Assembly: GCA_017522105.1 (NCBI GenBank)
Contig: JAFXAA010000036.1
Span: 1-64,000, forward strand
From: Bacteroidales bacterium
GTDB taxonomy: Bacteria; Bacteroidota; Bacteroidia; Bacteroidales; P3
Length of the DNA: 64,000 nt
Reading direction: 5' to 3'
The notes beneath the pieces were generated by a model that made no database searches, was not told the origin of the DNA, and worked only from the letters and a program-made list of their open reading frames with translations. The position numbers and the translations under genes are program-made. Of the stretch, positions 200 through 58,110 are shown piece by piece (position 1 is the stretch's first letter; the number at the start of each line of letters is the position of its first letter).

Positions 200-471
200 G
201 AGTGGATTGTGTTTTCTAGCATAGAACTCGCTTATGTGTACAATCTGAATAAAGTCGGTCTGAAAAACTGCGGGTAGCGTATTGATTTTCACGATGGGAG
301 AACATCGGATGTGAGTCTATAGGTTTTACTCCCCTTTTACTCCTCTTTTTATCATCCTTTACTCAAATTCTGCCTGGGTATAGGGTAGGTCTAGTGATCG
401 TCCTGTGTCGCTAAGGTGCTTTTTTATTCAGTGTTGCATTTGCAACTGGAACTTAGGAGCCGACGTTCAGA
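200..471. other. Intergenic region with an 11-bp-register pyrimidine-rich array
   Basis: No gene seen. Bases 321-375 read as five consecutive 11-mers (aggttttactc, cccttttactc, ctctttttatc, atcctttactc, aaattctgcct). The 23-base stretch 320-342 recurs exactly at 42834-42856. Further 11-mer-like words such as aggtctagtga follow up to about 400. This is one locus of the dispersed 11-bp family described in the findings. Confidence 0.6.
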
Positions 472-5140: not shown

Positions 5141-5296
5141 TGAAAAAAAATCCAAATAGCGGGATAATTTTTCTATTTTTCTGTAAATTGCTGAGTTATA
5201 AATTTCTATATTCTCCTGCTCGCTACGCGAGCGAAATCTTGTAAATCTGGTAAATTATTCCGGGTGCGGCGGGATGGCTGGTGGGTGGTTTTGTAT

Positions 5297-5351
5297 AGGT
5301 CTTCAGTAGGTCTATTAGCCGTTTAGTAGCCGTTTAGTAGCCGTTAAGGAC
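5297..5351. repeat. 11-bp-register array (five units)
   Basis: Five consecutive 11-mers: aggtcttcagt, aggtctattag, ccgtttagtag, ccgtttagtag, ccgttaaggac. It lies in the 719-bp divergent gap between iorA and the glycosyltransferase. No other gene is visible in that gap apart from the palindrome at 5452-5617. It belongs to the dispersed family described in the findings. Confidence 0.75.
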
Positions 5352-5451
5352 CTGCAAAGCCAATAAAAATAGGCAAAAGCGGATTTTTGTCTTTGGTAGT
5401 AGTTGTATGCCAGCGTGTTATCGGCAGGGTGGTTGCGAAGTTGTGGTTGAG

Positions 5452-5617
5452 GCGTTACAGCGTTACAGCGTTACAGTTCGAAATCTCCTATTTGAAAAGT
5501 CAAAAAAAAATTCTTATATCTATATATCTATATTAATATAGATATATAGATATAAGGTATAATTTGGGGTAGGAGGAAAAGCAAAATGGGAACTGTAACG
5601 CTGTAACGCTGTAACGC
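5452..5617. repeat. Nested palindrome (cruciform-like) built from 8-bp units
   Basis: Outer arms of 27 bp are perfectly inverted (5452-5478 with 5591-5617). Each is three copies of cgttacag or its complement ctgtaacg, plus flanks. The centre holds a perfect 44-bp AT palindrome (5513-5556) made of tatatcta-type octamers. A further short pair, ctccta/taggag, lies between. No ORF and no transposase is present. It sits in the intergenic gap between divergent genes. Confidence 0.85.
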
Positions 5618-5777
5618 TCGGGTGTTTTTCTGAACTTGGTTTGCGGTTTAATGTCCTTTTACTGAAGATGTTGGCTGGGATTGTGCCGGTGTTGTTGACA
5701 ATTTCCCGACATTGACCTGTTGCTTATAGTGGCGGAGGGCTTTTTAACTTTTTTTTTCATGATTGAAAATTATTTCG

Positions 5778-21987: not shown

Positions 21988-22094
21988 GGCGTATTTTTGT
22001 TTGCTGCAAAGATACACTTTTTCAGCCATACGGCAAATAACCACTGGTGGTGAATTGTCCGCCGGGCCCATCTTTTCCGCCCGTGCATCCCCCT

Positions 22095-22193
22095 CGGAGC
22101 CCCTTCGGAAATGCAACGGCCCTCAGACGGCTTTCCACTGAAGAACGGCCGTAGGGACTCCGTAGGGGCTCCGTAGGGACTCCGTAGAAACAA
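22095..22193. repeat. 11-bp-register array (about nine units)
   Basis: Reads in 11-mers from 22095: cggagcccctt, cggaaatgcaa, cggccctcaga, cggctttccac, tgaagaacggc, cgtagggactc, cgtaggggctc, cgtagggactc, cgtagaaacaa. The segment from about 22131 to 22183 recurs in inverted orientation at about 57994-58046. It lies upstream of zupT, between it and tRNA-His. Confidence 0.8.
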
Positions 22194-22326: not shown

Positions 22327-22401
22327 GGTGGGCGTAGTTCAGCTGGTTAGAGCGCCAGATTGTGGATCTGGAGGTCGTGGGTTCGAACCCCACCTCCCAC
22401 C
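22327..22401 (+). tRNA. tRNA-His (GTG)
   Basis: Cloverleaf readable by eye. G-1 at 22327, acceptor 22328-22334 with 22394-22400 (one C-U mismatch), D arm 'gttc...gagc', anticodon stem ccaga/tctgg with loop ttgtgga (anticodon GTG), T arm gtggg-ttcgaac-cccac and discriminator C. The extra 5' G opposite C73 is the histidine-tRNA hallmark. The CCA end is not encoded. Confidence 0.95.
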
Positions 22402-22410
22402 CTCGCAAAA

Positions 22411-28803: not shown

Positions 28804-29487
28804 ATGGAGGGCTTCATTCTTGCCGCCGGCCTTGGTACGCGGCTCCGTCCGCTCACTGACGACCGCCCCAAAGCTCTTGTGGAGGTGGGCGGCAAGCCCT
28901 TGCTGCAACTCGCTATAGAGAAACTCCAGAACGCAGGCGTCAACCACCTTGTCATCAACGTGCACCACTTTGCCGACAAGGTGGTTGACTTCGTCCGCAG
29001 CCGCCAGTGGCAGTGTGCCATAGACATCAGCGACGAGCGCGCCCTTCTGCTCGACACCGGCGGCGGCCTCAAGCATGCGGCGCACCTCTTCTCCGGGCAC
29101 GACAACGTGCTTGTGCACAACGTGGACATCATCTCCGACATAGACCTCTGCGACGTTGAGGCCAGGCACCTCCGCGACGGCAACCTCGTCACCCTCTGCG
29201 TCAGCCGTCGGCAGACCAAGCGCCTCCTTGAGTTCAGCCCCGATGGCCTGCTTGTGGACCGTGCCGAGAGCGGTCTTGCCTTCAGCGGCGTCTCTGTGGT
29301 CAGCCCTGAGCTCTTCCCGCTGTTGCCTGAAGCCGACCATCCCTATCCCGTGATTGACGAATACATACGCCTGGGCCGCACTCACCGCATAGGCAGCTAC
29401 CTCCATTCCGCCGAACGGTGGCTGGACGTGGGCAAGCCCGAAACCCTTGAACAGGCAAAGCAATGGATACTTTCCTCCGGCAAGTAG
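28804..29487 (+). CDS. Sugar-phosphate nucleotidyltransferase (MurU/GlmU-N-like)
   Basis: A 227-aa NTP_transferase. Nucleotide motif 'FILAAGLGTRLRPLTDDRPK', then 'LLLDTGGGLKHAAHLFSG' and 'VLVHNVDIISDIDL' (metal Asp). It resembles MurNAc-1-P uridylyltransferase (cell-wall recycling) and small mannose-1-P guanylyltransferases. It immediately follows glmS, which favours an amino-sugar or cell-wall substrate (inference). Its 3' end overlaps the nuclease gene by 25 bases. Confidence 0.85.
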   Translation: MEGFILAAGLGTRLRPLTDDRPKALVEVGGKPLLQLAIEKLQNAGVNHLVINVHHFADKVVDFVRSRQWQCAIDISDERALLLDTGGGLKHAAHLFSGHDNVLVHNVDIISDIDLCDVEARHLRDGNLVTLCVSRRQTKRLLEFSPDGLLVDRAESGLAFSGVSVVSPELFPLLPEADHPYPVIDEYIRLGRTHRIGSYLHSAERWLDVGKPETLEQAKQWILSSGK

Positions 29488-32264
29488 CGTCGCGCATCCT
29501 GCGTGAGCATCCCCGCGACACCGACCGCGTCCTGGTGGTCTTCAACAACCACCGCTCCGAGCTGTTCCTTCGCCGTGCATTTGAGCGCCTCTCTGCCGAG
29601 AGCGGCTCTTCGTTCTTCCTGCCGCACGTAACGGTCATCGACGACCTCGTGGCACAGCTCGGCAGCCTCAAAATCGTCCCCAACGAGTTCCTGCTCTTCG
29701 AGCTCTACCGCATCCACATGCAGATTGGGGGCAACGACCGCAAATACCAAACCTTCGAGGATTTTATCGCCTTCGGCGACATGATGCTCCGCGACTTTTC
29801 CGAGATTGACCGCTACTGTGTCGACGCGCGCCGCCTCTTTGTCAACCTGCACGACATAAAGGACATCCTTGAGTGGGACGTGGAGAACCCCTCCATGAGC
29901 CCCTTCCAGCACGACTATCTGCTCTTCTACCAGTCGCTGCACGACTATTACTGCCGTCTGCGCACCAACCTCGCCGAGCGTGGCGAGGCCTACGGTGGCA
30001 TGGCCTACCGCCATGTGGCCGAGAATATAGCCGACCTTGCCGACCGTTGCCCCTTCGACTTCATCTACTTTGTGGGCTTCAACGCCCTGTCGGAGTGCGA
30101 GAAGCGCATTATCCTGGAATACGAGCGCCGTGGCAGGGCCACCCTCCTCACCGACGCCGACATCTACTACTATTCCGACCCCATGCAGGAGGCAGGCCTC
30201 TTCCTGCGGCGCCATGAGACCGATTTCCCCGAACTGGCACCCAAGGCCCCGTCGCTCTTTTCGCAGGGCGAGCGCAAGGTGCACATCGTCGAATGCCCTG
30301 AGGGGGTGCTGCAGTGCAAATACGTGGGGCGTCTGCTGGACGAGCATCGCGATTGGCTCACCGACCCGGAGAGCACTGCCGTTGTCCTTGCCGACGAAAG
30401 CCTCCTCATCCCAACCCTCGACGCGCTTCCTGTCGTCGAGGGCGGCTACTCTGTCAATGTCACCATGGGCTACCCGTTCGCCGACAGCGGCATCCACGCC
30501 CTCGTCGTACGCCTCTTCTCCCTCTATCGTAGGGCTTCCGCGTCGGGCTACTACCATGCCGACCTCGTCGAGGTGCTCGGCAACCACCTGCTTGGACGTG
30601 TGCTCGGGCGCAAAGACCTGCGCCGCGTGGTGGCCGACACCCTGCGCCGCGAGAGCCGCATCCGCTCCACGGTGGCCGAAATCCGCGCCATGACCGGCAC
30701 CGATGCACTCGACTTCCTCTTTCCGGACGGTGAACCTTCGCCAGACGATGTCCTCGCCATCCTGCGGCATCTGGCAGAAATGCTCGCCTCCACCGACATC
30801 ATGGAGAACAACAAGAAGGAGAAGCAGGCCCTCGGCGGCCTGGCCGAAATCCTCGACTACTTCGACCAGCTGCAGCAGGAATACCATTTCATCGCAGACA
30901 TCAAGACTCTCGAAAAGGTCTACACCCGCATTGCACAGCGCCACAATATCGCCTTCCGCGGCGAGCCCCTTTCGGGCCTGCAGGTGCTCGGCGTGCTCGA
31001 AACACGCAACCTCGACTTCCGTCGCGTCATTCTCCTTTCGGCCAACGAGGGCACCATTCCGGCAGGCCGTTCCGATGCCACTCTCATCCCCTTCGAGCTG
31101 CAGCGCCACTTCCACCTGCCAACCTACGAGGAGAAAGACGCCGTCTATGCCTACAACTTCTATCGTCTGCTGCAACGCGCCGAGGAGGTGACGCTGCTCT
31201 ACAGCTCCGAGTCGGCAGCTATGGGCAAAGGCGAAGAGAGCCGATTCCTCAAGCAGGTGCGCCATGAACTTGCCGGCCGGTTCCCGGAGCATGTGAAGGT
31301 GGACGACCTTGTCGTCGACCTCCCACCCGAGCGCCACGCCACCACCATAGCCACCACGGTGCCCAAGGATGAAGACGCCTGCAGGCGCATCGCCGAGCTT
31401 GCCGGGCGCGGCTTCTCGCCATCGGCGCTCAACGTATACATCGGCTGTCCTCTGTCCTATCACTACAAATACATCAAAGGCCTTCGCGACGACAGCCTCG
31501 ACGACAGCCTCGACGCCTCACAGCTCGGCTCGGCGGTGCACAGCGCCCTGCAGCACATCTACACCCCATACCTGGGCCGCCGCGTCGACGCCCAGGGGCT
31601 GCGCGACGCCCTGACGACCCTGCCGCATACGCTCGACGAGGCTTTCGCCGAACTCTATAGGCACGGGCGCCCCACCGAAGGACGCAACCGTTTCCTGTAC
31701 TCCGTGGCCGAAAGCCAGGTGCGGCACATCCTGACCAAGGAGATAGACCTCATACAAAGTGGTTCGCGCATAGAGATAGTGGCCCTCGAACAGGAACTGT
31801 CCATGCCCATCGCCGACGGCGTGAGCCTCAGTGGCGTCGTGGACCGCATAGACCGCGTCGACGGTCGCCTGCGCGTGGTGGATTACAAGACGGGCTCTGT
31901 CGTAGACAAGGATATAGCGGTGAAGACCGCCGACCTCGACGACGGCAAGCCCATGCCCGGCAAGTGGTTCCAGCTGATGTGCTACGCCCTCCTCTACAGT
32001 CATGCCCACCCTCTCGGTGAGCCCCTCCTCTCGGGCATCTATCCGCTCCGCTCGCTGCGCTCGGATGTACGTCTGGCCACCACCGACGGGCGGCCGGAGA
32101 TAACCGCCGAGAGCCTCAAGGACTTCCGCGGCCGCCTCGGGGCCGTCGTGGCCGAACTCATGGACCCCGCCGTCCCCTTCGCGCCGCCGCAACAGCCCTC
32201 GGGCTGCTCCTTCTGCCCCGCCAAAGGCTTCTGCCCCGAAGCCCGCCTCTTCGACTTCGACTGA
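29463..32264 (+). CDS. AddB-like PD-(D/E)XK nuclease with Fe-S cysteines
   Basis: A 933-aa protein with an inactivated UvrD-type helicase body. The expected N-terminal Walker A is replaced by 'DRVLVVFNNHRSELFLRRAF', without GKS/T. The C-terminal RecB-type nuclease has Asp794 ('GVVDRIDRVDG') and Asp807-Tyr-Lys809 ('VVDYKTG'). Four cysteines, Cys662 ('NVYIGCPLSYHYKYIKG') plus Cys915, Cys918 and Cys924 ('CSFCPAKGFC'), match the AddB/Cas4 iron-sulfur pattern. It is probably the nuclease partner of an AddA helicase in double-strand-break repair; no addA is in the window. Confidence 0.85.
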   Translation: MDTFLRQVASRILREHPRDTDRVLVVFNNHRSELFLRRAFERLSAESGSSFFLPHVTVIDDLVAQLGSLKIVPNEFLLFELYRIHMQIGGNDRKYQTFEDFIAFGDMMLRDFSEIDRYCVDARRLFVNLHDIKDILEWDVENPSMSPFQHDYLLFYQSLHDYYCRLRTNLAERGEAYGGMAYRHVAENIADLADRCPFDFIYFVGFNALSECEKRIILEYERRGRATLLTDADIYYYSDPMQEAGLFLRRHETDFPELAPKAPSLFSQGERKVHIVECPEGVLQCKYVGRLLDEHRDWLTDPESTAVVLADESLLIPTLDALPVVEGGYSVNVTMGYPFADSGIHALVVRLFSLYRRASASGYYHADLVEVLGNHLLGRVLGRKDLRRVVADTLRRESRIRSTVAEIRAMTGTDALDFLFPDGEPSPDDVLAILRHLAEMLASTDIMENNKKEKQALGGLAEILDYFDQLQQEYHFIADIKTLEKVYTRIAQRHNIAFRGEPLSGLQVLGVLETRNLDFRRVILLSANEGTIPAGRSDATLIPFELQRHFHLPTYEEKDAVYAYNFYRLLQRAEEVTLLYSSESAAMGKGEESRFLKQVRHELAGRFPEHVKVDDLVVDLPPERHATTIATTVPKDEDACRRIAELAGRGFSPSALNVYIGCPLSYHYKYIKGLRDDSLDDSLDASQLGSAVHSALQHIYTPYLGRRVDAQGLRDALTTLPHTLDEAFAELYRHGRPTEGRNRFLYSVAESQVRHILTKEIDLIQSGSRIEIVALEQELSMPIADGVSLSGVVDRIDRVDGRLRVVDYKTGSVVDKDIAVKTADLDDGKPMPGKWFQLMCYALLYSHAHPLGEPLLSGIYPLRSLRSDVRLATTDGRPEITAESLKDFRGRLGAVVAELMDPAVPFAPPQQPSGCSFCPAKGFCPEARLFDFD

Positions 32265-32403: not shown

Positions 32404-32535
32404 GCCCCGCACCGTATCCCCTACGGAGCCCCTACGGCCGTTCTTCAGTAGTTCTTCAGTAGTTCTTCAGTCAAACACTGAAGAACTACTGAAGAACTAC
32501 TGAAGAACGGCCGTAGGGACTCCGTGCCGGTTCCG
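32404..32535. repeat. 11-bp-register array folding into a 47-bp hairpin
   Basis: Within the 474-bp gap 32265-32738. Left arm 32425-32471 and right arm 32477-32523 are inverted copies with one mismatch, separated by the loop caaac. Each arm has three agttcttcagt/actgaagaact-type 11-mers plus a ggccgt and a ggag-ccctac-type unit. Period-11 words continue outside both arms. The promoter for the TPR lipoprotein lies after it, and no gene is visible in the gap. Closely related to the element at 50735. Confidence 0.85.
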
Positions 32536-32621
32536 TGGCGGAGGGGGGTGATTGAGCGGCTGGCGGAAGAGGGCGGGGGAGGGGAAAAAGAGGCGCTGCG
32601 GTTGAGGAATTGCAGTTTTTT

Positions 32622-32652
32622 TTTGCCAGTCCAAAATAAATAACTATATTTG
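32622..32652 (+). promoter_or_regulatory. Bacteroidetes promoter for the TPR lipoprotein
   Basis: TTTG (32622-32625), 19-base spacer, TATATTTG (32645-32652). The start codon is about 86 bases further on. Confidence 0.8.
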
Positions 32653-32738: not shown

Positions 32739-34571
32739 ATGAGAAGAACTCTTTTTGTCATGGCCCTTGTTTCGGTGCTGCTCACCGGCTGCAACGGGCT
32801 GTCGAAGATGAAATCGAACGCCGGCAAGGTGCGCTACCAGGCCAACCCCAATCCTGTGGAGACCATGGACGAGAAAGTGGTGGTCAAGTTCACGGGCCAG
32901 GTGCCGCAGAAATATTTTGACAAGGGCTGCGTGATGTTCATACAGCCGGTCTTCTCGTGGGAGGGGGGCAACATACCCCTGGAACCCCTCACGCTGAAGG
33001 GCGAGAAGGTGGACGGCGACGGCACCATCATCAACTACGCCAACGGCGGGCGCTTCACGTACAGCGACATGTTCGACTTCAAGCCTGGCATGGAGACTGG
33101 CCGCGTGACGCTGACGCCGGTGGGCTACAGCGCACGCCGCACCAACGAGGATGCCCGCTTCGCCGACGACATCCTGCGCGACAACAACGGCAAGGAGTTC
33201 TCGCCGGTGCTGATTTCGGACGGTGTGAACAACACCTCGTCTATGGTCGACATCAAGGGCAACATCTCCATATCGCCCATCAACTACAACAAGACGCAGG
33301 GCATTGTGGAGACTGCCGACATATACTTCAACGGTGGCACGTCGGAGCTTGACTGGAACTTTGCCATGAACCAGAAGTTCGACTCCTACAACACGCTGCA
33401 GCAGCTGAAGCGCATCATGTTGGAGCAGGGTCTGCCGAAGCAGATCAGCATCACTGGTTGGGCTTCGCCAGAGGGCGAGGAGACCGACAACGTGGGTGTG
33501 TCCAAGAACCGTGCTGACGTCGCCACGGCGCAGCTGAACAAGGTGCTTGACGAGGTGCTCACCATCATGGCCCGCCGCGCCAAGGTGAAGCCCCAGGATG
33601 TGGACTACTACAAGTACGAGCAGCTGAAGAAGCTGGTCATCACCACGCGCGCCGCCGGCGAGGACTGGGTGCACTTCGTGGTGATGGTGGAGGCAAGCGA
33701 CATTCAGGACAAGCACGCCATCATCAACATCGTGGAGACGCAGCAGAACCTGGTAAAACGCGAGCAGATGATACGCAACATGGCCGAGGTGTACAGCGAG
33801 CTGAACGACGAAATCTTCCCCAGCCTGCGCCGCGCGCAGATAGCCCTCTACTACAGCGAGGCCCGCAAGACCGATGCCGAGTTGGCCAAGCTGGCGTCCA
33901 CCAAGCCCGAGAAGCTTAGCTTCGACGAGCTGATGTACGCTGCCTACATCAACTACAATTACGACACCAAGCTCAAATACTACAAGTGGGCCACCGAGAA
34001 CCACAGCTCGGAGTGGGCCGCCTGGAACAACGCCGGAGCCGTGGCTTTCTTCCTCGACGACTACGAGGAGGCCGAGCGCTACCTCAAGGTGGCACGCGAC
34101 ATGAACCCCCACAACCCCGATGTGCTCAACAATACGGGCCTGCTTTTCCTCGCCAAGAAGGACTATGCGCTGGCCAAGTACTACTTTGAGGAGGCCAAGC
34201 GCCAGGGCAGCAACGATGCCGATGCCAACATCCCCATCCTCAACCTCAAGCGCGGCAACTACAGTGAGGCCCAGAAGGCCATGAAGGGCAACCCCTGCAC
34301 CTACAACCTCGCTTTTGCGCAGCTGATGAACGACGAGACGGGCACCGCTGTGCGCACGCTGGATTGCTGTCTGGACCAGAACGCCGACGTGAAGTACCTG
34401 CGCGCAGTGTGCTACGCCCGCCTTGGCGACAAGGCCAACTGCCTGAAGAACCTCAAGGCCTCGGTGGACGACAACTACGAGTACAAGCGCAAGGCCGCCG
34501 TGGACACTGAGTTCAAGGAGTACTGGGACGACCCGGAGTTCAAGCTCATCATAAAGCTCTACAACGATTGA
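32739..34571 (+). CDS. TPR lipoprotein with OmpA-like segment
   Basis: A 610-aa protein with lipobox 'VLLTGC' (Cys18). The middle contains 'ISITGWASPEGEETDNVGVS' then 'KNRADVATAQLNKVLDEV', which resembles the peptidoglycan-binding motif region of OmpA C-terminal domains. The C-terminal third carries TPR-type helices ('AAWNNAGAVAFFLDDYEEAE', 'PHNPDVLNNTGLLFLAKKDY'). It is probably an outer-membrane-anchored, cell-wall-associated scaffold. Specific role unknown. Confidence 0.78.
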   Translation: MRRTLFVMALVSVLLTGCNGLSKMKSNAGKVRYQANPNPVETMDEKVVVKFTGQVPQKYFDKGCVMFIQPVFSWEGGNIPLEPLTLKGEKVDGDGTIINYANGGRFTYSDMFDFKPGMETGRVTLTPVGYSARRTNEDARFADDILRDNNGKEFSPVLISDGVNNTSSMVDIKGNISISPINYNKTQGIVETADIYFNGGTSELDWNFAMNQKFDSYNTLQQLKRIMLEQGLPKQISITGWASPEGEETDNVGVSKNRADVATAQLNKVLDEVLTIMARRAKVKPQDVDYYKYEQLKKLVITTRAAGEDWVHFVVMVEASDIQDKHAIINIVETQQNLVKREQMIRNMAEVYSELNDEIFPSLRRAQIALYYSEARKTDAELAKLASTKPEKLSFDELMYAAYINYNYDTKLKYYKWATENHSSEWAAWNNAGAVAFFLDDYEEAERYLKVARDMNPHNPDVLNNTGLLFLAKKDYALAKYYFEEAKRQGSNDADANIPILNLKRGNYSEAQKAMKGNPCTYNLAFAQLMNDETGTAVRTLDCCLDQNADVKYLRAVCYARLGDKANCLKNLKASVDDNYEYKRKAAVDTEFKEYWDDPEFKLIIKLYND

Positions 34572-37196: not shown

Positions 37197-38189
37197 CTAT
37201 TTCTTGATGAAGGAAAGGAAGTCCAGGTCAATGCTCAAAGACACAAAGGGCTTGACGAGCCACGCCTTTGCCGTTACGTCTTCTATGCTCAGGTTTGGAC
37301 CTATCACCTCGCCGCTGGTGTAGCCGTTCTTCAGCACCTGGTATTCGGCTATGTTCACGCCGAGGGTAAGGTAGAAGAAGTCCACGAAGCGGAAGCTGCT
37401 GCCGACGTAGAAGTTGCGGAAGAGGTTGCTGCCGCCGAAGCCCACATAGATGCCTATGTCGTAGTTGAACTGCTGGTCGAAGCGCTTGATGCCCTTGCCC
37501 TTGCTGCCTATGGAGTGGTCTTTGTTGAAGTAGTCGGTGAGGTCCCACAGCATCACCGACGCGCCGGTGACATAGTCGAAGTCCACGGAGCCTGCGTTGC
37601 GGTTGCTGATGTACTTGTCGTAGGTGCCTGCCGTGGCGCCGCTCTTGAGGCGTATCTCCCAGTCGGGGGCGCGGTAGAAGCGCAGCGCGACGCCCTGTAT
37701 GGGGCGCACTTTCTTCTTCTTGTTGTTGCTTTGCGCTATGCGCTCCTCGGCGGCGCGTGCGCGTTCTTCGAGGTATTTGTTAGCCTCTTCCTTGCGCACG
37801 GCCTCTATCTCGGCGATGCGCACTATGGAGCGCAGCGAGTCCACCAGGTGGATGTAGTAGTTGCGCTCGGCCTCCAGCTTTTCCTTGTCCACACCGTTGG
37901 CCGAAAGGATTTCGCGGTAGAAGGCCTCCTTTTCGCGCAGGGCGCTGAGAGCCGCCGTGTCGGCCACGCGCTTGATGAGGGTGTCGGTGCGGATAATGTA
38001 GGCTGTGTCCACGCGCAGGAGCGTGACGGTGTCGGTGCGGAAGAGGAAGACAGTGTCGTGCTGTGGCAGCCGTTGGGCGGCATCGGCTTCGGTTGCGGTG
38101 TCGGCCACAGGTGCCACGTGCAGGGTGTCCTGCGCGCGGAGCGGTGCGAGGGCCAGCAGTGCCAGGGCTATGAGCAGCAGTTGTTTCAT
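37197..38189 (-). CDS. Exported protein with coiled coil and beta-barrel-like C-terminus
   Basis: A 330-aa protein with signal peptide ('[17 protein letters not shown]'). The middle (about 80-150) is a charged helical region likely to form a coiled coil ('[20 protein letters not shown]'). The C-terminal 170 residues have alternating amphipathic strands ('[20 protein letters not shown]', '[19 protein letters not shown]'), suggesting an outer-membrane barrel. Function unknown. Its start overlaps the hisS stop by 4 bases. Confidence 0.75.
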
Positions 38190-39538
38190 TGCAGGGCCTC
38201 GGCCAGTTTGTCTGCGGCCACGGTCTGCTGCGTGCCGTCGGCCATGTTTTTCAGGGTCACGGTGCCGTCGCGCATCTCGCTCTCGCCCACGAAGGCCACG
38301 AAAGGCACCTGCTTGCGGTTGGCGTAGTCCATCTGTTTCTTCATCTTGGCGGCGTCGGGGTAGATGAGCGTGCTGATGCCTGCGGCGCGCAGGCGTGCCG
38401 CTATGGCCACGCAGGCGGCCTGTTCGGCAGGGCCGAAGTTGATGAAGAGCACACGTGCGGCCTGCTCAAGGCCTTCGGGGAAGGCCCCCAGCTCGGTGAG
38501 CACGTCGTAGATGCGGTCGGCGCCGAATGAGATGCCCACGCCGCTGACGCCGGGCATGCCGAAGATGCCGGTGAGGTTGTCGTAGCGGCCGCCGCCGCAG
38601 ATGCTGCCAATCTGCACGTCCTTGGCCTTGACCTCGAAGATGGCGCCGGTGTAGTAGTTCAGGCCGCGGGCCAGGGTGAGGTCGAGTTCCACCTCGGCGT
38701 GTATGTCGCAGGCCTGCACCATGCCGAAGAGTTCCTCAAGTTCCAGGGCGCCGGCCCTGCCCACCTCCACGTTGGCGAAGAGGGCCTTGAGCTGCTGTAT
38801 CTTGTCGGTGGCGCTGCCGCTGAGCGAGAAGACGGGGTCGAGGGCGGCTATCTGCTCCGCCGTGAGGCCGCGTTCGGCCAGTTCGGCGCGCACGTTGTCA
38901 AGGCCTATCTTGTCCAGTTTGTCGATGGCCACGGTGATGTCCACCAGCTTGTCCGGCGCCCCGATGAGTTCGGCGATGCCGGCCAGCACCTTGCGGTTGT
39001 TGATTTTCACGCATACGTTGATGCCCAACTTGCCGAACACCATGTCTATCATCTGCACCAGCTCCAGCTCGTTGAGCAGCGAGGTGGAGCCTATCATGTC
39101 GGCGTCGCACTGGTAGAACTCGCGGTAGCGGCCTTTCTGCGGCCGGTCGGCGCGCCACACGGGCTGCAGTTGGTAGCGGCGGAAGGGCAGCTGCACCTGG
39201 TCGCGGTGCTGCACCACGAAGCGTGCAAAGGGCACCGTGAGGTCGTAGCGCAGGCCGCGCTCGCAGATTTGCGGCGCCACCTTGTGGTAGTCCTGGCTGA
39301 AATCTACGCCCTCCATGAAGTCGCCGCTGTTGAGCACCTTGAAGAGCAGCTTGTCGCCCTCTTCGCCGTATTTGCCCATCAGGGTGGAGAGGTTCTCCAA
39401 CGACGGAGTCTCTATCGGCTCGAAGGCAAAAGCCTTGAAAACAGAGCGTATGGTGTCGAAAATATAGTTGCGGCGCGCCATCTCCGTGGGCAGGAAGTCG
39501 CGCGTACCCTTTGGTATTGAGCACTTAACGGTTGCCAT
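38186..39538 (-). CDS. hisS: Histidyl-tRNA synthetase
   Basis: A 450-aa class II synthetase. Motif 2 region '[20 protein letters not shown]' and '[14 protein letters not shown]'; His-specific motifs '[15 protein letters not shown]' and '[14 protein letters not shown]'. The C-terminal anticodon-binding domain is '[20 protein letters not shown]'. A minus-strand -7 box TATCTTTG (39566-39559) lies 20 bases upstream of the ATG. Confidence 0.97.
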
Positions 39539-39644
39539 GACATTTTTGTTTTACTTTGCAAAGATACGCTTTTTTGTTGAATAATGGACATGTATTGCGA
39601 AAATAGTTGCACCGGTCGGTCGTCAGGCTCCGAAACGCCGGTGC

Positions 39645-39765
39645 CTCTACGGAGTTTCTACGGCTGTTCTACGGTTGTTCTACGGTTGTTTAACGGTTGT
39701 TCTACGGTTTTAACCGTTAAACAGTCGTAGAACAACCGTTAAACAACCGTAGAACAGCCGTTGGA
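39645..39765. repeat. 11-bp-register array of eleven units with inverted symmetry
   Basis: From 39645 the sequence is eleven consecutive 11-mers: ctctacggagt, ttctacggctg, ttctacggttg (twice), tttaacggttg, ttctacggttt, taaccgttaaa, cagtcgtagaa, caaccgttaaa, caaccgtagaa, cagccgttgga. The first half is the approximate inverse complement of the second (centre about 39710), so it can fold into a long imperfect hairpin. It lies between divergent hisS and the T9SS-type protein. No gene is visible in the 371-bp gap. Confidence 0.85.
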
Positions 39766-39909
39766 GACTGGGTGCTGCGAGAGGCATGGGGTGGAGCGGT
39801 GCTTCAGCGGCGCAGGCCTGCTGTGGCGGACGGCGTGCGGAAATGATGAGGCGAACACAATAAATAGAGGATTAGTTCGTTATGGTGAATGGAAAAAGTA
39901 CACGGCACC

Positions 39910-41958
39910 ATGAAAAGAATCATTGCAGTTTTCGTGTTGGGGCTTGCCCTCTTTGGCGGCGCACCCCAAGCTCAGCATCCCATGTCCCTGCCCAACGGCA
40001 GCTTCGAGCAGTGGACCAGCCACCAGGGCTACAGCGTGACGGCGCTCTTTGTGCCCATACAGGTCTATGGCTCATACTCCACGCCGAGCCTGTGGGATTA
40101 TCCGCAGTACCCGGTCGACGAGACGGTTTCGATGTTCGGGCTCAACATTAATGTCAACACAATGGTGCCCGTCATCAAGGCTTCGCCAGAAACGGCGTCG
40201 GTGCCCGACGGCGGCAGCGCTGTGAGGCTCCAGACCTTCAAGCTTGAGGACATTGTGAACTCCACGGTGCTGAGCATGGCCAGTGGCAGCATCGACACCT
40301 CGCTTGTCGACGAGGTCATACCCTCCATCCTGTCGACGGGTGCTGTGGACATCGATGCGTTCCTGCCGCTCGCCAGCGACATGATGTCCGGCGGCGGCGA
40401 CCTCTCCGCAATGCTGCCCACGCTGCTTGCCTGCGATGTCAACGATTTCATCACCGGCGGCATTGCCCTCGGCGATTTCAGGCCGCAGCGCCTCACGGGC
40501 AGCTACAAGTACCATTCCGCCTCCGGCGGCGACAATGGCGGCGTATTCCTGCTGGGCACACGCTACAACCCCCTCACCCACAAGCGTGAAATCGTGGGTG
40601 GAGGGCTGTACCTCGGCCTGGTGGACACGGCTGAATACGTGCCCTTCGAGGTGGAGTACCTCTCGCTGGGCGGCATGATGTCGGTGCCGCCCGACGCGGT
40701 GGCCGACTCGCTCGTGGTGCTGCTCATATCCTCGGCCGGTGCCAACCGCCAGCAGGGGTCGTACCTCTGCCTGGACAATCTGGTGCTGTGGTCGGAGCCG
40801 GACACCTGCGCCGCTGTAGTGGGGCTGACGGCTGTGGCCGACATACACGAGGCGCTGCTCAGCTGGACTGTGTCCGACACCGTTCAGGGGTTTGAGTACG
40901 AATATGGTGCTGCCGGATTTGCCCCGGGCAGCGGCACCACAGGCACCTCGTCTTCGCCCTCCGTGACCTTAGAAGGCCTCGATGCGGGCACGGCCTATGA
41001 CGTCTATGTGCGCACTCTCTGCTCCGACACTGTCTATGGCGAGTGGAGCCGTGTGCAGTTCACCACCCTTGCCGACACCTGCTCTTCTGTGCAGAATCTT
41101 ACCGTCGTGAACCAAGCCGCTGCGGGCCGTCCCGAGGCGGTGCTCGTGTGGAACGGCACTTCGCAGCCCTCCTACTGGGAGGTTGAGTACGGCCCCGCCG
41201 GCTTCCAGCAGGGCCACGGCTCTGTGGCGGTGGCTTTCGGCACGCGTTTCGCCATCTACGAGTTGGAGAACGCGCACCTCCTGAATCCCGCCACATTGTA
41301 TGACTTCTATGTGCGCTCGGTGTGCTCCGGCGGCGTTTACGGCAGCTGGGATTCTGTGCAGTACCTTACCCGCTGTGCCAGGGTGGGCAACATCGCTGTC
41401 AGCGGTGTCGCCTCCGACTTGTGGGTGGCCGCCGATGGCGGTGTGGCGGGGTTCAGCGTGGCTTGGACCGACACCACGGGCGCCGGCATGTGGGGTGTAC
41501 GCTACGGCATCAGCTCCGCAGGACAGGCTGACGGATGGGGCACATACGTGGAGGTTGACACGCCCTATTTCGCCTTCCCGCCACTCGTACAGCAGCAGAC
41601 GTACATCGTAGAAGTCACGTCCCTCTGCGGGCCAGGCAGCCATGGCGATGCCGTCATGGTGAGCTTTACCACCCCGTACATCGGTGACGTCGACACCAAC
41701 GCCGCCATTGTCGCGACAGCGCGAAGGCAGGGGCCTGCGCTCACCGTCTCGCCCAATCCCGCCTGCGGTCGCTGTGTTGTGGCTGCCGATGACGGAACGC
41801 CAGCGGTGCTGACGCTCTACTCTGTGGACGGTTGCAGAATAATGACCGTGACATCCGACGGCAAGCCCGTGGAGCTCGACCTGCCCTACAGGGGTCTGTT
41901 CCTGTTGCATGCGGCCTCCATGGACGGCACTGCCGTCTACCGTATTGTGAACCGATAG
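39910..41958 (+). CDS. Secreted Fn3-domain protein with T9SS C-terminal sorting domain
   Basis: A 682-aa protein using ATG 39910, which places the signal peptide ('MKRIIAVFVLGLALFGGAPQ') at the N-terminus; the upstream in-frame ATG at 39889 adds seven polar residues. After an N-terminal domain (about 25-300), fibronectin-III-like repeats follow ('AGTAYDVYVRTLCSDTVYGE', 'PATLYDFYVRSVCSGGVYGS'). The last 75 residues ('LTVSPNPACGRCVVAADDGT', then 'GLFLLHAASMDGTAVYRIV') match the type A T9SS sorting domain. Probably cell-surface adhesive or enzymatic; no catalytic motif seen. Confidence 0.85.
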   Translation: MKRIIAVFVLGLALFGGAPQAQHPMSLPNGSFEQWTSHQGYSVTALFVPIQVYGSYSTPSLWDYPQYPVDETVSMFGLNINVNTMVPVIKASPETASVPDGGSAVRLQTFKLEDIVNSTVLSMASGSIDTSLVDEVIPSILSTGAVDIDAFLPLASDMMSGGGDLSAMLPTLLACDVNDFITGGIALGDFRPQRLTGSYKYHSASGGDNGGVFLLGTRYNPLTHKREIVGGGLYLGLVDTAEYVPFEVEYLSLGGMMSVPPDAVADSLVVLLISSAGANRQQGSYLCLDNLVLWSEPDTCAAVVGLTAVADIHEALLSWTVSDTVQGFEYEYGAAGFAPGSGTTGTSSSPSVTLEGLDAGTAYDVYVRTLCSDTVYGEWSRVQFTTLADTCSSVQNLTVVNQAAAGRPEAVLVWNGTSQPSYWEVEYGPAGFQQGHGSVAVAFGTRFAIYELENAHLLNPATLYDFYVRSVCSGGVYGSWDSVQYLTRCARVGNIAVSGVASDLWVAADGGVAGFSVAWTDTTGAGMWGVRYGISSAGQADGWGTYVEVDTPYFAFPPLVQQQTYIVEVTSLCGPGSHGDAVMVSFTTPYIGDVDTNAAIVATARRQGPALTVSPNPACGRCVVAADDGTPAVLTLYSVDGCRIMTVTSDGKPVELDLPYRGLFLLHAASMDGTAVYRIVNR

Positions 41959-42834: not shown

Positions 42835-42900
42835 AGGTTTTACTCCCCTTTTACTCAAACTTTACCAAAATACTACCTTTATCAAAGGTTGCTCCCATAC
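42835..42900. repeat. 11-bp-register pyrimidine array
   Basis: aggttttactc, cccttttactc, aaactttacca, aaatactacct, ttatcaaaggt, tgctcccatac in 11-base steps. Bases 42834-42856 are identical to 320-342. It lies just after the EEP gene, in the 502-bp gap before the receptor gene. Confidence 0.6.
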
Positions 42901-49268: not shown

Positions 49269-50576
49269 CTATTTCACTATCATCTCGATGTTCTCCTCGC
49301 CCATGCGTGCGGCGAGCCAGCGGTGCATCTTGCGTCGGTCGGCGTTGGCCAGTCGGCCTCCGTCGTGCAGGTGCACTATGGCCACCGTGCCCGTGCCCAC
49401 GCGCCCCACTCCAACATACTCCACCTGCGGGAAGAGTGCCTGTGCCTCGGCGTCGATGTGCGATGCCAGGGTGTCGTAAAGCGTGTAGGTGCGCAGCTGC
49501 CCTTCGAGGTCGGCCACCTGCGCCGCCAGCTGCCGGTTGGTGGAGTTGGCCGCCGAGGCGATGCTGTTCACCTGCGAGGCGAGGCTCTCCAGCCCCTTGC
49601 TGTCGGCGCCCTGTATGACGGCCAGCATGTAGCCCTTCAGTTTGTAGCGTTCCATGGCCTTCTGCGCCTCGGCGATTTCGTCGTCGCTGATGGTGCGCCC
49701 CACGGCCACCACGCGCAGGGTGTCCTGCTCGGCCCGCTGCGCGAGTATCTGGGTGCCGTTCTGCGCCAGCTCGTGGTCCACAAAGGCCTTGATGTTGCGC
49801 TCCAGGATGTCTTTCTTCACGATGTTCACCGTCATCACGGCGGCGGGTATCATCGTGATCACCACCACCCAGGTGACAAGGCGCCGCCCGCGCCTGGCCA
49901 GCTCGGGCTGGATGTTGGACGCCGAGGGGAAGCGCAGCATCTTGACCCCGAGGAAGGTGGCAAGGGCAATGAAGACGGTGTTGATGAAGAAGAGGTAGAA
50001 GGCGCCGAAGAAGTAGTTCCACTGCGCCGTGGCCAGGCCGTAGCCCGCTGTGCACAGCGGCGGCATGAGGGCCGTGGCTATTGCCACGCCGGGAATCACC
50101 TGCCCCTTGCTCTTGGTGGTCAGCGCCAGCACGCCGGCGGCGCCGCCGCAGAAGGCTATCAGCACGTCGTAGAGGGTGGGGGAGGTGCGCGCCAGCAGCT
50201 CGCTGCGCGCCTCGCTCAAGGGCGAGATGAGGAAGTAGACCGTGGCCGTCAGCACCGAGATGAGGGTGGCCACGCCGTAGTTCTTCAGCGCGCGTCGCAG
50301 CAGCTCGTAGTCGCCGATGCCCACGCTCAGCCCCATGCCGATGATGGGCCCCATGAGCGGCGAGACGAGCATGGCGCCGATGATGACAGCCGTGGAGTTG
50401 ACGTTGAGCCCCAGCGACGCTATCAGGATGGCAAACATGAGAATCCACAGGTTGGTGCCGCGGAACACCACGCCCGCGCTCACCTGCTCCACCACCTCCT
50501 GCTCGTTCTCGCGGTCGTCCGTCAGGCGGAAGTATCGGTCAAGGGTCTTGAGTAGTCTCTGTAGGTATTCTTTCAT
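49269..50576 (-). CDS. DUF389 membrane protein
   Basis: A 435-aa protein started at ATG 50576-50574 ('MKEYLQRLLKTLDRYFRLTD'). The DUF389 core 'IASLGLNVNSTAVIIGAMLV' with 'SPLMGPIIGMGLSVGIGDYE' and 'VIPGVAIATALMPPLCTAGY' sits in about seven membrane segments. The C-terminal 190 residues are soluble. Function of the family is unknown; TIGR00341-like members are proposed transporters. The longer frame to 50714 has Arg/Cys-rich non-family sequence and was rejected. Confidence 0.85.
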   Translation of the reverse strand: MKEYLQRLLKTLDRYFRLTDDRENEQEVVEQVSAGVVFRGTNLWILMFAILIASLGLNVNSTAVIIGAMLVSPLMGPIIGMGLSVGIGDYELLRRALKNYGVATLISVLTATVYFLISPLSEARSELLARTSPTLYDVLIAFCGGAAGVLALTTKSKGQVIPGVAIATALMPPLCTAGYGLATAQWNYFFGAFYLFFINTVFIALATFLGVKMLRFPSASNIQPELARRGRRLVTWVVVITMIPAAVMTVNIVKKDILERNIKAFVDHELAQNGTQILAQRAEQDTLRVVAVGRTISDDEIAEAQKAMERYKLKGYMLAVIQGADSKGLESLASQVNSIASAANSTNRQLAAQVADLEGQLRTYTLYDTLASHIDAEAQALFPQVEYVGVGRVGTGTVAIVHLHDGGRLANADRRKMHRWLAARMGEENIEMIVK

Positions 50577-50681: not shown

Positions 50682-50734
50682 CAGCGTCGCCCCACAGCGG
50701 TCCCTTCGGTGCAAGAACCTATCCGACAGGGCAT

Positions 50735-50815
50735 TTCTTCAGTAGTTCTTCAGTAGTTCTTCAGTCAAACACTGAAAAACTACTGAAGAACTACTGAAGA
50801 ACTACTGAAGAAATG
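50735..50815. repeat. 11-bp-register hairpin array, sister of the 32.4-kb element
   Basis: ggcatttcttc, then agtagttcttc units on the left; loop caaac (50766-50770); then act plus gaaaaactact, gaagaactact (twice) and gaagaaatgcc on the right. The right arm has one unit more than the left, so the repeat number can change. The loop and unit sequence are identical to those at 32425-32523. No gene in the 50577-50998 gap. Confidence 0.85.
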
Positions 50816-50817
50816 CC

Positions 50818-50925
50818 GTAGAGGCTCCGGAGGGACGACGGAGCAACTACCCATTTCGGACGTAGAGGCTCCGGAGGGACGACGGAGCAACTACCCATTT
50901 CGGACGTAGGGGCTCCGGAGGGGAG
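50818..50925. repeat. 44-bp tandem repeat (four times 11 bp), two and a half copies
   Basis: gtagaggctccggaggg...ttcggac at 50818-50861 and 50862-50905 are identical 44-base units, followed by a partial third copy from 50906 (gtaggggctccggagggg). Period 44 equals four 11-bp steps, and the words gtag-ggctcc match those in the other arrays. It lies just upstream of the gene at 50999. Confidence 0.85.
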
Positions 50926-50998: not shown

Positions 50999-51748
50999 AT
51001 GGCAAAACAGAAATCGACAGGGCTGCTGGTGAACGGCAGCGTGAAGGCGGCGGGAATGACTTTCTACACCCGCCAGGGTCAGACTGTGGTGCGCGCGGCG
51101 CGCAGTGCGCAGCCCGAGCGGCGCAGCCGCGGCCAGTTCGATCAGCGCATGCGCATGCGCCACACCATAGCGCTGTGGCACATCGTGAAGGTGGCGAGCC
51201 CCTACTTTGGCGAGGGCGTGACGGCCTACCGCCGTTTCGCGTCGCAGGCCAACCGTCTGGCTCCCGTCTATGTGCCCTGCACGGGCTCCCTCAGCGGCGC
51301 CACGTTCCTGTTGCCGGGCATCCCCGTGAGCGACGGCCCGCTGCCTACCATCAAGATGTGGTACGACGAGGTCGGCGGCCAGCCCGCCCTGCTCACCAAC
51401 CTCAAGCCCGAGAACTGCGCCCCGCGCGAGACCTTGAGGCTCTGCTGCCTGCGCCAGTCGGCCGACGGTGCCGCTCCGCGCGTGGACATGCACTGGCGCC
51501 TGATGGAGATGCCCACGGGCACCGACCATTTCGGGGCCGGCGAGCTGCATCTGGTGCTCGTGGACGGCCGCGTGGCCCTCGTCGGCGCCGCCCTGGCCGA
51601 CCCGATGACGGGCTGGGCCCTGGTGCTCACCGACGGCGACCGCTGCTCGTCGCAGACCGTCGTCACGCGGAGCACCTTCTACGAGCGCTACACCACCGCC
51701 GAAGCTCTGGAGACGGCCGCCGCCTCCTACGGCGGTCTGACGGAATAA
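50999..51748 (+). CDS. Hypothetical basic protein, 249 aa
   Basis: Unrecognised. It begins 'MAKQKSTGLLVNGSVKAAGM' and 'TFYTRQGQTVVRAARSAQPE', an N-terminal pattern (K..G..NG....G..FY.R.G..VVR) resembling the start of small Bacteroidetes DUF6266-type proteins, which is a guess. No signal peptide or membrane segment. It is preceded by 420 bases of repeats and followed by the kor operon promoter region. Start chosen for the ATG at 50999. Confidence 0.65.
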   Translation: MAKQKSTGLLVNGSVKAAGMTFYTRQGQTVVRAARSAQPERRSRGQFDQRMRMRHTIALWHIVKVASPYFGEGVTAYRRFASQANRLAPVYVPCTGSLSGATFLLPGIPVSDGPLPTIKMWYDEVGGQPALLTNLKPENCAPRETLRLCCLRQSADGAAPRVDMHWRLMEMPTGTDHFGAGELHLVLVDGRVALVGAALADPMTGWALVLTDGDRCSSQTVVTRSTFYERYTTAEALETAAASYGGLTE

Positions 51749-57902: not shown

Positions 57903-57991
57903 AGTGGTTGTTGTTTTACGCTGCAAAGATAATGCTTTTATGTGACGTGGCAAAATATTTTTTTCGGGTGGTGCGGAGGGGGTGTTTTGGT

Positions 57992-58046
57992 ATGGAGTCC
58001 CTACGGAGCCCCTACGGAGTCCCTACGGCCGTTCTTCAGTGGAAAG
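57992..58046. repeat. 11-bp-register array, inverted copy of the 22.1-kb element
   Basis: atggagtccct, acggagcccct, acggagtccct, acggccgttct, tcagtggaaag in 11-base steps. The inverse complement (ctttccactgaagaacggcc...) is the same as about 22131-22183 over more than 50 bases. Period-11 words continue toward 58090. Located between the small barrel gene and cutC. Confidence 0.85.
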
Positions 58047-58110
58047 CCGTAGCGGGGGCGTCGAAATGCAGTGGGGAAGCCGAAGGGGCTGCGGTGCGGT
58101 CCTGCAATGC

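What the first reader, a model, noticed from the sequence alone, without database searches (positions are those of the whole stretch)
32404..32535. A dispersed family of intergenic arrays in strict 11-bp register
Eight intergenic loci (about 321, 5297, 22095, 32404, 39645, 42835, 50735 and 57992) are made of consecutive 11-mers. Word sets differ between loci (ctgaagaacta, ccgtagaacaa, ccgtagggact, ccgtttagtag, cccttttactc) but look related. At 32.4 kb the arms are 47 bp, inverted, with one mismatch and a 5-base loop. Arrays lie only between genes and often upstream of promoters. Eleven is not a multiple of 3, so this is not coding; 11 bp is close to one turn of A-form RNA or B-DNA (the functional reading is inference). 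I know of no described element with this design.
Basis: seen in the sequence. Interest (0 to 1): 0.75.

Follow-up and report, generated by a model that had tools for sequence, protein, structure and literature searches.

The report
Promoter-phased 11-bp palindromic DNA arrays
A genus of rumen bacteria carries many near-identical palindromic stretches of DNA built from 11-letter words, placed upstream of gene switches at distances that step by one turn of the DNA helix, which suggests an undescribed way of docking something onto one face of the DNA next to RNA polymerase.

Summary
Lag 11 is the strongest repeat spacing in the window and in 441 kb of its genome (47 segments; 0 at lags 10 and 13; 0 in three Markov controls), and the arrays are intergenic. 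The 32.4-kb array is one of 73 exact copies of a palindromic apex in the genome. Other species of the genus have 11-bp arrays with other words; one has about 45 copies of an unrelated 11-mer palindrome. At many orthologous sites species carry arrays of different words, and between two close species the apex differs in all seven pairs aligned.

New here: of 171 palindromes examined, 127 lie between divergent genes, and the distance from apex to the promoter's -7 box is quantised at about 11n+5 bp (93 promoters, p=9.5e-10; 55 unseen promoters, p=1.6e-5, same phase; also in the species with the unrelated word; 19 of 21 single-promoter cases in three of eleven phases). Start codons are not phased. 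Arrays without the palindromic core did not show it (n=18).

Best reading: DNA-level docking arrays, one unit per helical turn, acting on the RNA-polymerase face. The protein is not identified. A self-spreading palindrome with phase-dependent placement is the main rival. REP/RAYT membership fails; MITE membership is unproven.

The parts
32407..32541 (.). The array of the finding: palindrome, outer rings CCGTAGGGRCT-type, inner core (TTCTTCAGTAG)2-TTCTTCAGT / ACTGAAGAA-(CTACTGAAGAA)2
   Evidence: 73 exact apexes of this kind in the genome
32472..32476 (.). Apex (loop) CAAAC, dyad centre 32474; 29 of 32 apexes examined in this genome have CAAAC/GTTTG, 0 of 36 in its sister species
   Evidence: 45 of the 50 places listed
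32645..32652 (+). Predicted -7 box TATATTTG of the downstream gene, 171 bp from the dyad centre (11n+6)
   Evidence: sequence; the motif itself is recalled from the literature on Bacteroidetes promoters
32739..34571 (+). Downstream gene (TPR protein; lipoprotein-like start by reading); its upstream site carries other 11-mer arrays in G023 and G012 and no array in G008
29463..32264 (+). Upstream gene, PD-(D/E)XK nuclease superfamily protein
50730..50850 (.). Second core copy in the window (CAAAC apex 50766-50770), between divergently called genes 49269-50576(-) and 50999-51748(+)
50817..50922 (.). 44-bp tandem (4 x 11) extending the right arm, 2.4 copies
39639..39765 (.). Palindromic array of the word CCGTAGAACAA / CCGTTAAACAA between histidyl-tRNA synthetase gene 38186-39538(-) and 39889-41958(+); G012 has a different 11-mer word upstream of the same tRNA-synthetase gene
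22090..22187 (.). Outer-ring array CCGTAGGGACT with a shorter central part, upstream of tRNA-His (22328-22402 +)
57991..58060 (.). Outer-ring array GGAGTCCCTAC with a short apex (GTTCTTCAGTGGAAAG)
5287..5359 (.). Array of the word CCGTTTAGTAG; it is the left end of a larger dispersed repeat (about 5299-5618)
321..365 (.). Weak array TTTTACTCCCC
42835..42880 (.). Weakest of the eight, below the lag threshold; shares 23 nt with the 321 locus

Best explanation
The arrays are DNA-level docking platforms upstream of promoters. Each 11-bp unit spans one turn of the helix as it exists in negatively supercoiled bacterial DNA, so identical contacts repeat on one face; the dyad orients units outward toward one or two promoters, and the register is aligned with the face on which RNA polymerase sits. 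A protein that binds unit by unit, outward from the dyad, would thus meet polymerase at one or both promoters and tune or insulate them. Shown: period, position, phase lock of the palindromic cores to predicted -7 boxes, shared sites with different words, apex homogenisation within a species. Inferred: that a protein binds, that it contacts polymerase, whether it activates, silences or insulates, and that apex and inner units spread among existing sites by ectopic exchange.
For: Distance from apex to the -7 motif TAnnTTTG facing away (motif nearest the gene): discovery set, 93 deduplicated promoters, R=0.46 at period 11, p=9.5e-10, phase 5.1; 55 unseen promoters, R=0.44, p=1.6e-5, phase 5.2, V-test against phase 5.2 set beforehand p=2.2e-6. 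Taking the motif nearest the element instead: 94 promoters, R=0.39, p=2.9e-7; 55 unseen, R=0.41, p=7.4e-5. In the discovery set (not deduplicated within species) the phase is 4.9, 4.9, 5.5 and 5.8 in G000, G023, G012 and G008+G016, p from 0.0001 to 0.0072, although G012 uses an unrelated word and apex. Elements between co-directional genes, with one promoter: 24 of 33 have the motif, 21 of the 24 in phases 4-6 of 11; after deduplication and the gene-distance gate 19 of 21, R=0.82, p=4.1e-8. Called start codons R=0.05, n=181; near-miss motifs [ACG]A..TTTG (n=72) and TA..[ACG]TTG (n=17) show no phase. The -7 motif lies between element and start on 25 of 37, 43 of 63 and 28 of 42 gene sides against 4, 9 and 5 for reversed letters, and in 0 of 84 elements. 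Position: 47 of 56 (G000), 42 of 57 (G023), 25 of 43 (G012) apexes examined are between divergent genes. Precedents seen: an in vivo helical repeat of 11 bp/turn in bacteria (PMC8501960, passages); PhoP boxes work only on the right helical face (PMC3335776, section 11); CarH binds one face of tandem 11-bp direct repeats at promoters (PMC9304148, passages).
Against: No binding protein was identified and no expression data exist. Words differ between species, so a binding protein would have to change specificity at dozens of sites. Arrays without the palindromic core did not show the lock: 18 promoters, R=0.26, p=0.29, mean phase about 1.5 bp off the prediction. In the small unselected sets, -7 to -7 spacing of divergent pairs with arrays was not phased (n=14, R=0.07; 10 core and 9 array pairs not significant), although 42 pairs from all core loci were (p=0.0038). 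In the unseen set G023 alone is p=0.065 or 0.04 depending on motif choice. Some control motifs show phase too: TTG p=0.0026, TTTTTT p=0.026, TA..TTT[ACT] p=0.0093, T[CGT]..TTTG p=2.3e-4 at another phase. One off-phase co-directional element (L038, phase 0) is lost to the 600-bp gene gate. Phase alone cannot tell a protein from in-register growth of the array. Promoters are predicted by motif, genes by an own crude caller.
Confidence: 0.5

Rival explanations
1. Self-spreading or mutational palindromes: short repeats grow in 11-bp steps at a hairpin apex by template switching, copies are homogenised by ectopic exchange, and they persist only where not transcribed; promoter phase comes from how they are seeded or grow.
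For: Apex CAAAC/GTTTG in 29 of 32 copies examined in G000 and in 0 of 36 in G023, and the apex differs in all 7 aligned ortholog pairs, some with near-identical flanks; one pair reads like an inverted core (L004/L040). In G000 arm complementarity falls outward ring by ring from 0.97 to about 0.25 and conservation across copies from 0.98 to 0.37. 7- and 8-bp arrays also exist. No SbcD match over the cut-off in G000, G008, G012 and G023. Some sites are empty in a relative (G008 at the finding's own site).
Against: Random or merely tolerated placement predicts no promoter phase, and the lock is strongest where there is a single promoter. Lags 10 and 13 are 0 in G000, G023, G012 and G016, not a spread around 11; but lag 10 is not 0 everywhere (6.2 per 100 kb in G001, 4.0 in G002). 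SbcD does not track palindromes cleanly: G016 has both; the G001 and G024 stretches show no such palindrome and the genomes no SbcD over the cut-off.
Confidence: 0.27
2. Cruciform or supercoil sink: divergent transcription makes negative supercoils between promoters and the palindrome extrudes to absorb them.
For: Long palindromes concentrated between divergent genes; very stable fold.
Against: Once extruded, linear phase between apex and promoter should not matter, yet it is fixed; co-directional elements show it most strongly. Arrays of direct units only, by reading, occur in other species.
Confidence: 0.1
3. Non-autonomous mobile element (MITE or REP-like) moved by a transposase.
For: 35 to 73 exact apexes per genome in G008, G023 and G000 and about 45 in G012, apex in both orientations; sites without an element exist.
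Against: Y1 transposase (PF01797) was not found in G008 or G016, which carry the core. No sharp ends or target duplication were seen; similarity fades gradually. Promoter phase is not expected.
Confidence: 0.08
4. RNA hairpins: terminators or double-stranded RNA.
For: Strong RNA fold at 39640-39770, -77.4 kcal/mol; of 12 G012 elements between co-directional genes 9 lie within 60 nt of the upstream stop codon.
Against: Most lie upstream of predicted promoters; 0 of 84 elements have a -7 box inside; by reading, the core palindrome is not followed by a T run.
Confidence: 0.05

Closest known systems
Helically phased activator sites (PhoP boxes; CRP class I sites are recalled)
   Same: Function depends on distance to the promoter in whole helical turns (PMC3335776, section 11)
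   Different: Single boxes of one regulon, not dispersed near-identical palindromes of 11-bp arrays with species-specific words
CarH/CarA operators
   Same: Tandem 11-bp direct repeats bound on one face of the DNA at promoters (PMC9304148, passages)
   Different: Three or four repeats nnnnTnnACAn overlapping -35/-10 at carotenoid genes; here many loci, upstream of the promoter, palindromic
REP/BIME/REPIN with RAYT (Y1) transposases
   Same: Dispersed intergenic palindromes in many copies
   Different: REPs are 20-40 bp with a tagged end (PMC3733652, title and start of abstract in the listing); here 11-bp rings, no Y1 gene found in two carriers
BrickBuilt MITE of Porphyromonas gingivalis
   Same: Bacteroidales, intergenic, tandem units inside a dispersed element
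   Different: 23-bp units, leader/tail with IS5-like terminal repeats, 19 copies (PMC4596501, abstract and part 1 of section 7)
Heptamer short tandem repeats of Nostoc and Xanthomonas, and the Nostoc tRNA-Leu intron P6b hairpin
   Same: Dispersed degenerate short repeats at conserved sites with length and sequence turnover; one hairpin word class replaced by another in place (PMC4692102 and PMC4476775, passages)
   Different: 7 bp; no helical phase mentioned in the passages seen; Xanthomonas repeats lie close to the 5' neighbouring ORF

Membership tests
REP/RAYT | Cognate Y1 (RAYT) transposase in carrier genomes | tested here: not met
   PF01797: 0 in G008 (88% complete) and G016 (100%), one match each in G000 and G023
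REP/RAYT | 20-40 bp palindrome with a conserved tag at one end | tested here: not met
   Core 67 bp plus rings; similarity fades over about eight rings, no one end
MITE (BrickBuilt type) | Terminal inverted repeats shared with a full-length IS | tested here: inconclusive
   Whole element is an inverted repeat without sharp ends; no IS comparison was run
MITE (BrickBuilt type) | Target site duplication / clean empty site | tested here: inconclusive
   G008 site empty but flanks diverged, no duplication visible
Heptamer STRR | 7-bp period | tested here: not met
   Period 11; separate 7-bp arrays exist with a different gene context
Helically phased activator site | Whole-turn spacing to the promoter | tested here: met
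   For palindromic cores; not shown for arrays without the core, n=18
Helically phased activator site | A known protein binds and changes transcription | not testable with these tools
   no expression or binding data
CarH operator | nnnnTnnACAn repeats | tested here: not met
   By reading only: tandem CTGAAGAACTA, CCGTAGGGGCT, CCGTAGAACAA and GTAATACTACC lack TnnACA (sequences)
Rfam RNA family | Match above gathering score | tested here: not met
   Only a tRNA in the window

The most novel reading that the evidence does not exclude
A genus-wide promoter ruler: dispersed palindromic arrays whose word is free to change from species to species but whose 11-bp pitch and 11n+5 offset to the -7 box are fixed, read by an unknown oligomerising DNA-binding protein that co-evolves with the word and works on a large share of the divergent promoters of the genome.
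Probability: 0.35. Interest if true: 0.9.

Novelty: categorically new. Interest (0 to 1): 0.8.

Why it matters
If the phase lock is functional, it is a genome-scale natural readout of the in vivo helical repeat and of a promoter-control layer that acts on many divergent gene pairs at once; my searches found no such factor or element described. It also offers a bacterial case of dispersed short DNA evolving in concert within a species while staying at the same sites, normally discussed for satellites and ribosomal DNA. Both claims can be tested with spacing reporters and a DNA pull-down.

Tried and rejected
Chance: excluded by lag scans, Markov resampling and fold shuffles. Coding repeats: 11 is not a multiple of 3 and arrays avoid called genes. 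Assembly artefact: several contigs end in the core, as expected of a repeat, but copies occur in mid-contig with unique flanks in separate assemblies. Viral origin: the exact core is in 0 viral contigs; the plasmid collection was not searched. RAYT mobilisation. SbcCD loss as the cause: suggestive, not clean. Divergent geometry as the source of the phase: rejected because single-promoter elements are locked too. An attempt to show the lock for arrays without core failed. The lag counts did not mask N: the G018 values come from a run of N and the two G005 arrays are A-rich low complexity. Literature: nine full-text searches of an open-access library showed no description of an 11-bp-register dispersed element phased to promoters in their listings; subscription papers are not held.

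Full report
Observation. A match-mismatch scan of the window at every lag from 4 to 30 gives 10 segments of score 15 or more at lag 11, 4 at lag 22 and at most 3 at any other lag. Tandem Repeats Finder and the inverted-repeat finder agree. Seven of the eight named loci pass; 42835 does not. In 441 kb of the same genome (window plus 20 stretches) there are 47 lag-11 segments of score 16 or more, none at lags 10 or 13, and none at lag 11 in three Markov resamplings. The 32.4-kb element folds at -64.1 kcal/mol as DNA, z -17.7.

A dispersed element. A search of the own genome with window 32404-32541 gave 149 first-look candidates, of which 40 were scored; 80 of the 90 matches reported (both strands counted) have E below 1e-26, and 25 copies are printed. 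The exact apex pattern TTCAGTNNNNNACTGAA occurs 73 times in G000, 72 in G023, 35 in G008 and 4 in G016; the letter-reversed control occurs 0 times. Exact cores in the collection of 84,980 species genomes were found in 37 stretches, all from three rumen Bacteroidales assemblies: RUG061, RUG377 and RGIG5009 (which may leave out the own genome). Of 41 genomes searched with the array, 5 of 25 in the genus matched and 0 of 16 from other families.

Genus-wide period, species-specific words. Lag-11 arrays with other words turn up in the sampled stretches of G002, G012, G016, G001, G004, G022, G024 and G015, and one each in G020 and G021. I do not count two A-rich low-complexity arrays in G005 and a run of N in G018. 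G012 holds about 45 copies of an unrelated palindrome built from GTAATACTACC with apex TTTAAAA. 60 kb from two other families showed nothing at any lag tested.

Anatomy. In 56 G000 copies arm complementarity falls ring by ring from 0.97 next to the apex to 0.30 at ring eight and about 0.25 beyond; conservation across copies falls from 0.98 to 0.37; G023, G012 and G008 decline likewise. The G000 apex is CAAAC/GTTTG in 29 of 32 copies (45 of the 50 listed); in G023 none of 36 is (31 are GCCGC or GCAGC); G008 has ten different apexes in 11 copies.

Same site, changing sequence. In seven aligned G000/G023 orthologous sites both species carry the element and the apex differs in seven of seven, with flanks up to nearly identical (the G023 loci had been fetched for carrying the core, so presence there is selected). 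Of 18 pairs (15 G012 sites) compared by eye with relatives, 10 had an 11-mer array of another word in the relative and 8 had none (many partners had been fetched for carrying elements). For genes with an array upstream in species A, I asked whether the ortholog in unselected stretches of species B has one (the two sides of a divergent region count separately; both / only A / only B / neither): G023-G000 7/1/0/7; G000-G023 3/2/1/4; G008-G023 2/1/1/5; G023-G016 3/1/2/0; G012-G023 3/5/0/0; G012-G000 2/5/0/0; G008-G000 0/1/3/4; G000-G008 0/1/1/3; G023-G008 0/1/1/3. So sites are well shared between the closest pair and only partly beyond. At the finding's own site G000 has the full core, G023 an 11-mer array with a short apex, G012 a GTAAAAGAACA array and G008 no array.

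Position. Intervals with arrays are divergent more often than length predicts in G000 (14 of 29, p=0.0008) and G023 (16 of 26, p=0.0032), not in G012 (4 of 11, p=0.76), borderline in G016 (5 of 7, p=0.07). Of the 171 apexes examined, 47 of 56 in G000, 42 of 57 in G023, 25 of 43 in G012, 9 of 11 in G008 and 4 of 4 in G016 are between divergent genes; 33 are between co-directional genes, 3 between convergent genes, and 8 could not be classified. These apexes were taken by search rank and listing order, not at random. The -7 motif lies between element and start on 25 of 37, 43 of 63 and 28 of 42 gene sides, against 4, 9 and 5 for reversed letters, and in none of 84 elements (the middle set holds a few RUG377 loci and one RGIG5009 locus).

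Phase lock. The distance from the apex centre to the -7 motif was tested by Rayleigh statistics after removing promoters more than 72% alike over 60 bp. The scan over periods 5 to 19 is highest at 11. I then fetched 64 apexes not used before (28 G000, 22 G023, 14 G012). On 55 promoters not seen before, with period and phase fixed beforehand, R=0.44, p=1.6e-5, V-test p=2.2e-6; G000 p=0.01, G023 p=0.065, G012 p=0.01. With the motif nearest the element instead, R=0.41, p=7.4e-5; 0.026, 0.04 and 0.022. Together 147 promoters give R=0.46, p=5.6e-15. Of 33 co-directional elements 24 have the motif and 21 of these fall in phases 4-6; deduplicated and gated, 19 of 21, R=0.82 (one off-phase element, L038, is lost to the gate). 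The finding's element is one of them at 171 bp. Negative or mixed results: arrays without the palindromic core, n=18, p=0.29; small unselected sets of divergent pairs. Four control motifs gave some phase: TTG (p=0.0026), TTTTTT (p=0.026), TA..TTT[ACT] (p=0.0093) and T[CGT]..TTTG (p=2.3e-4, shifted by about 3 bp); I read them as parts or variants of the same promoters, the aligned consensus of which shows T-rich sequence upstream of GTATCTTTGCA. CAAA..TA, AAAAAA, ATG, called starts, [ACG]A..TTTG, TA..TT[ACG]G and TA..[ACG]TTG gave none.

Interpretation. A fixed offset to the promoter in whole turns, in several species with different words, is hard to get from merely tolerated insertion and easy to get if something on one face of the DNA must line up with RNA polymerase. 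11 bp per turn is the helical repeat seen in living bacteria by repressor looping (PMC8501960, passages), PhoP activates only from the right face (PMC3335776, section 11), and CarH shows a protein occupying tandem 11-bp repeats on one face (PMC9304148, passages). That a protein does this here is inference. In-register growth of a self-spreading palindrome remains the strongest rival because the apex clearly spreads among existing sites.

Novelty. REP/RAYT fails, heptamer repeats differ in period and context, MITE features are unproven. I rate the class categorically new as a dispersed element, provisionally, while its likely mode of action resembles helically phased activator sites.

Noticed in passing
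window 5299-5618: A dispersed repeat of about 320 bp holding the CCGTTTAGTAG array, inverted 8-bp arrays (GCGTTACA) and a 44-bp AT-rich palindrome; further copies at 74-77% identity in RUG061/G023 (L190, L194, L044), G008 (L193) and at a contig end of G000 (L070). It looks like a separate MITE-like element.
   Followed up: partly
L071, L075, L094, L098 and others (G000, G023): Degenerate 7-bp arrays, some paired as imperfect hairpins by eye. Outside called genes they are mostly between co-directional genes (7 of 7 in G000, 25 of 33 in G023, 12 of 13 in G002); 9 of 16, 9 of 42 and 12 of 25 fall in called coding, perhaps a caller artefact. 8-bp arrays are fewer.
   Followed up: partly
G000, G008, G012, G023 genomes: No SbcD match over the cut-off in the four genomes with abundant long palindromes (G000 has one weak match below it, in the window); 8 of 25 genus members incl. 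G016 have one over the cut-off. The correlation is not clean.
   Followed up: partly
divergent intergenic regions without arrays: Opposed -7 motifs are 31-33, 43-44 or 52-54 bp apart in 13 of 32 pairs (R=0.48 at period 11, 0.47 at 10), as if divergent promoters are themselves spaced by turns.
   Followed up: partly
G016 contig C3, 5.8-61.5 kb: All matches to the core found in G016 lie within 56 kb of one contig.
   Followed up: no
L080:11257-11364: A hybrid palindrome: left arm of the CCGTAGAACAA word, right arm of the CTGAAGAACTA word, joined at the apex.
   Followed up: no
L114:4694-4838 and L101:5680-5824: G008 and G023 share one element that reads identical over 145 bp inside a 9-kb region of 94% identity; the apex is the same in both, unlike the G000/G023 pairs.
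   Followed up: no
window 50817-50922: 44-bp tandem of 2.4 copies at 98% matches continuing an 11-bp array, as if arrays can grow in multiples of 11.
   Followed up: no
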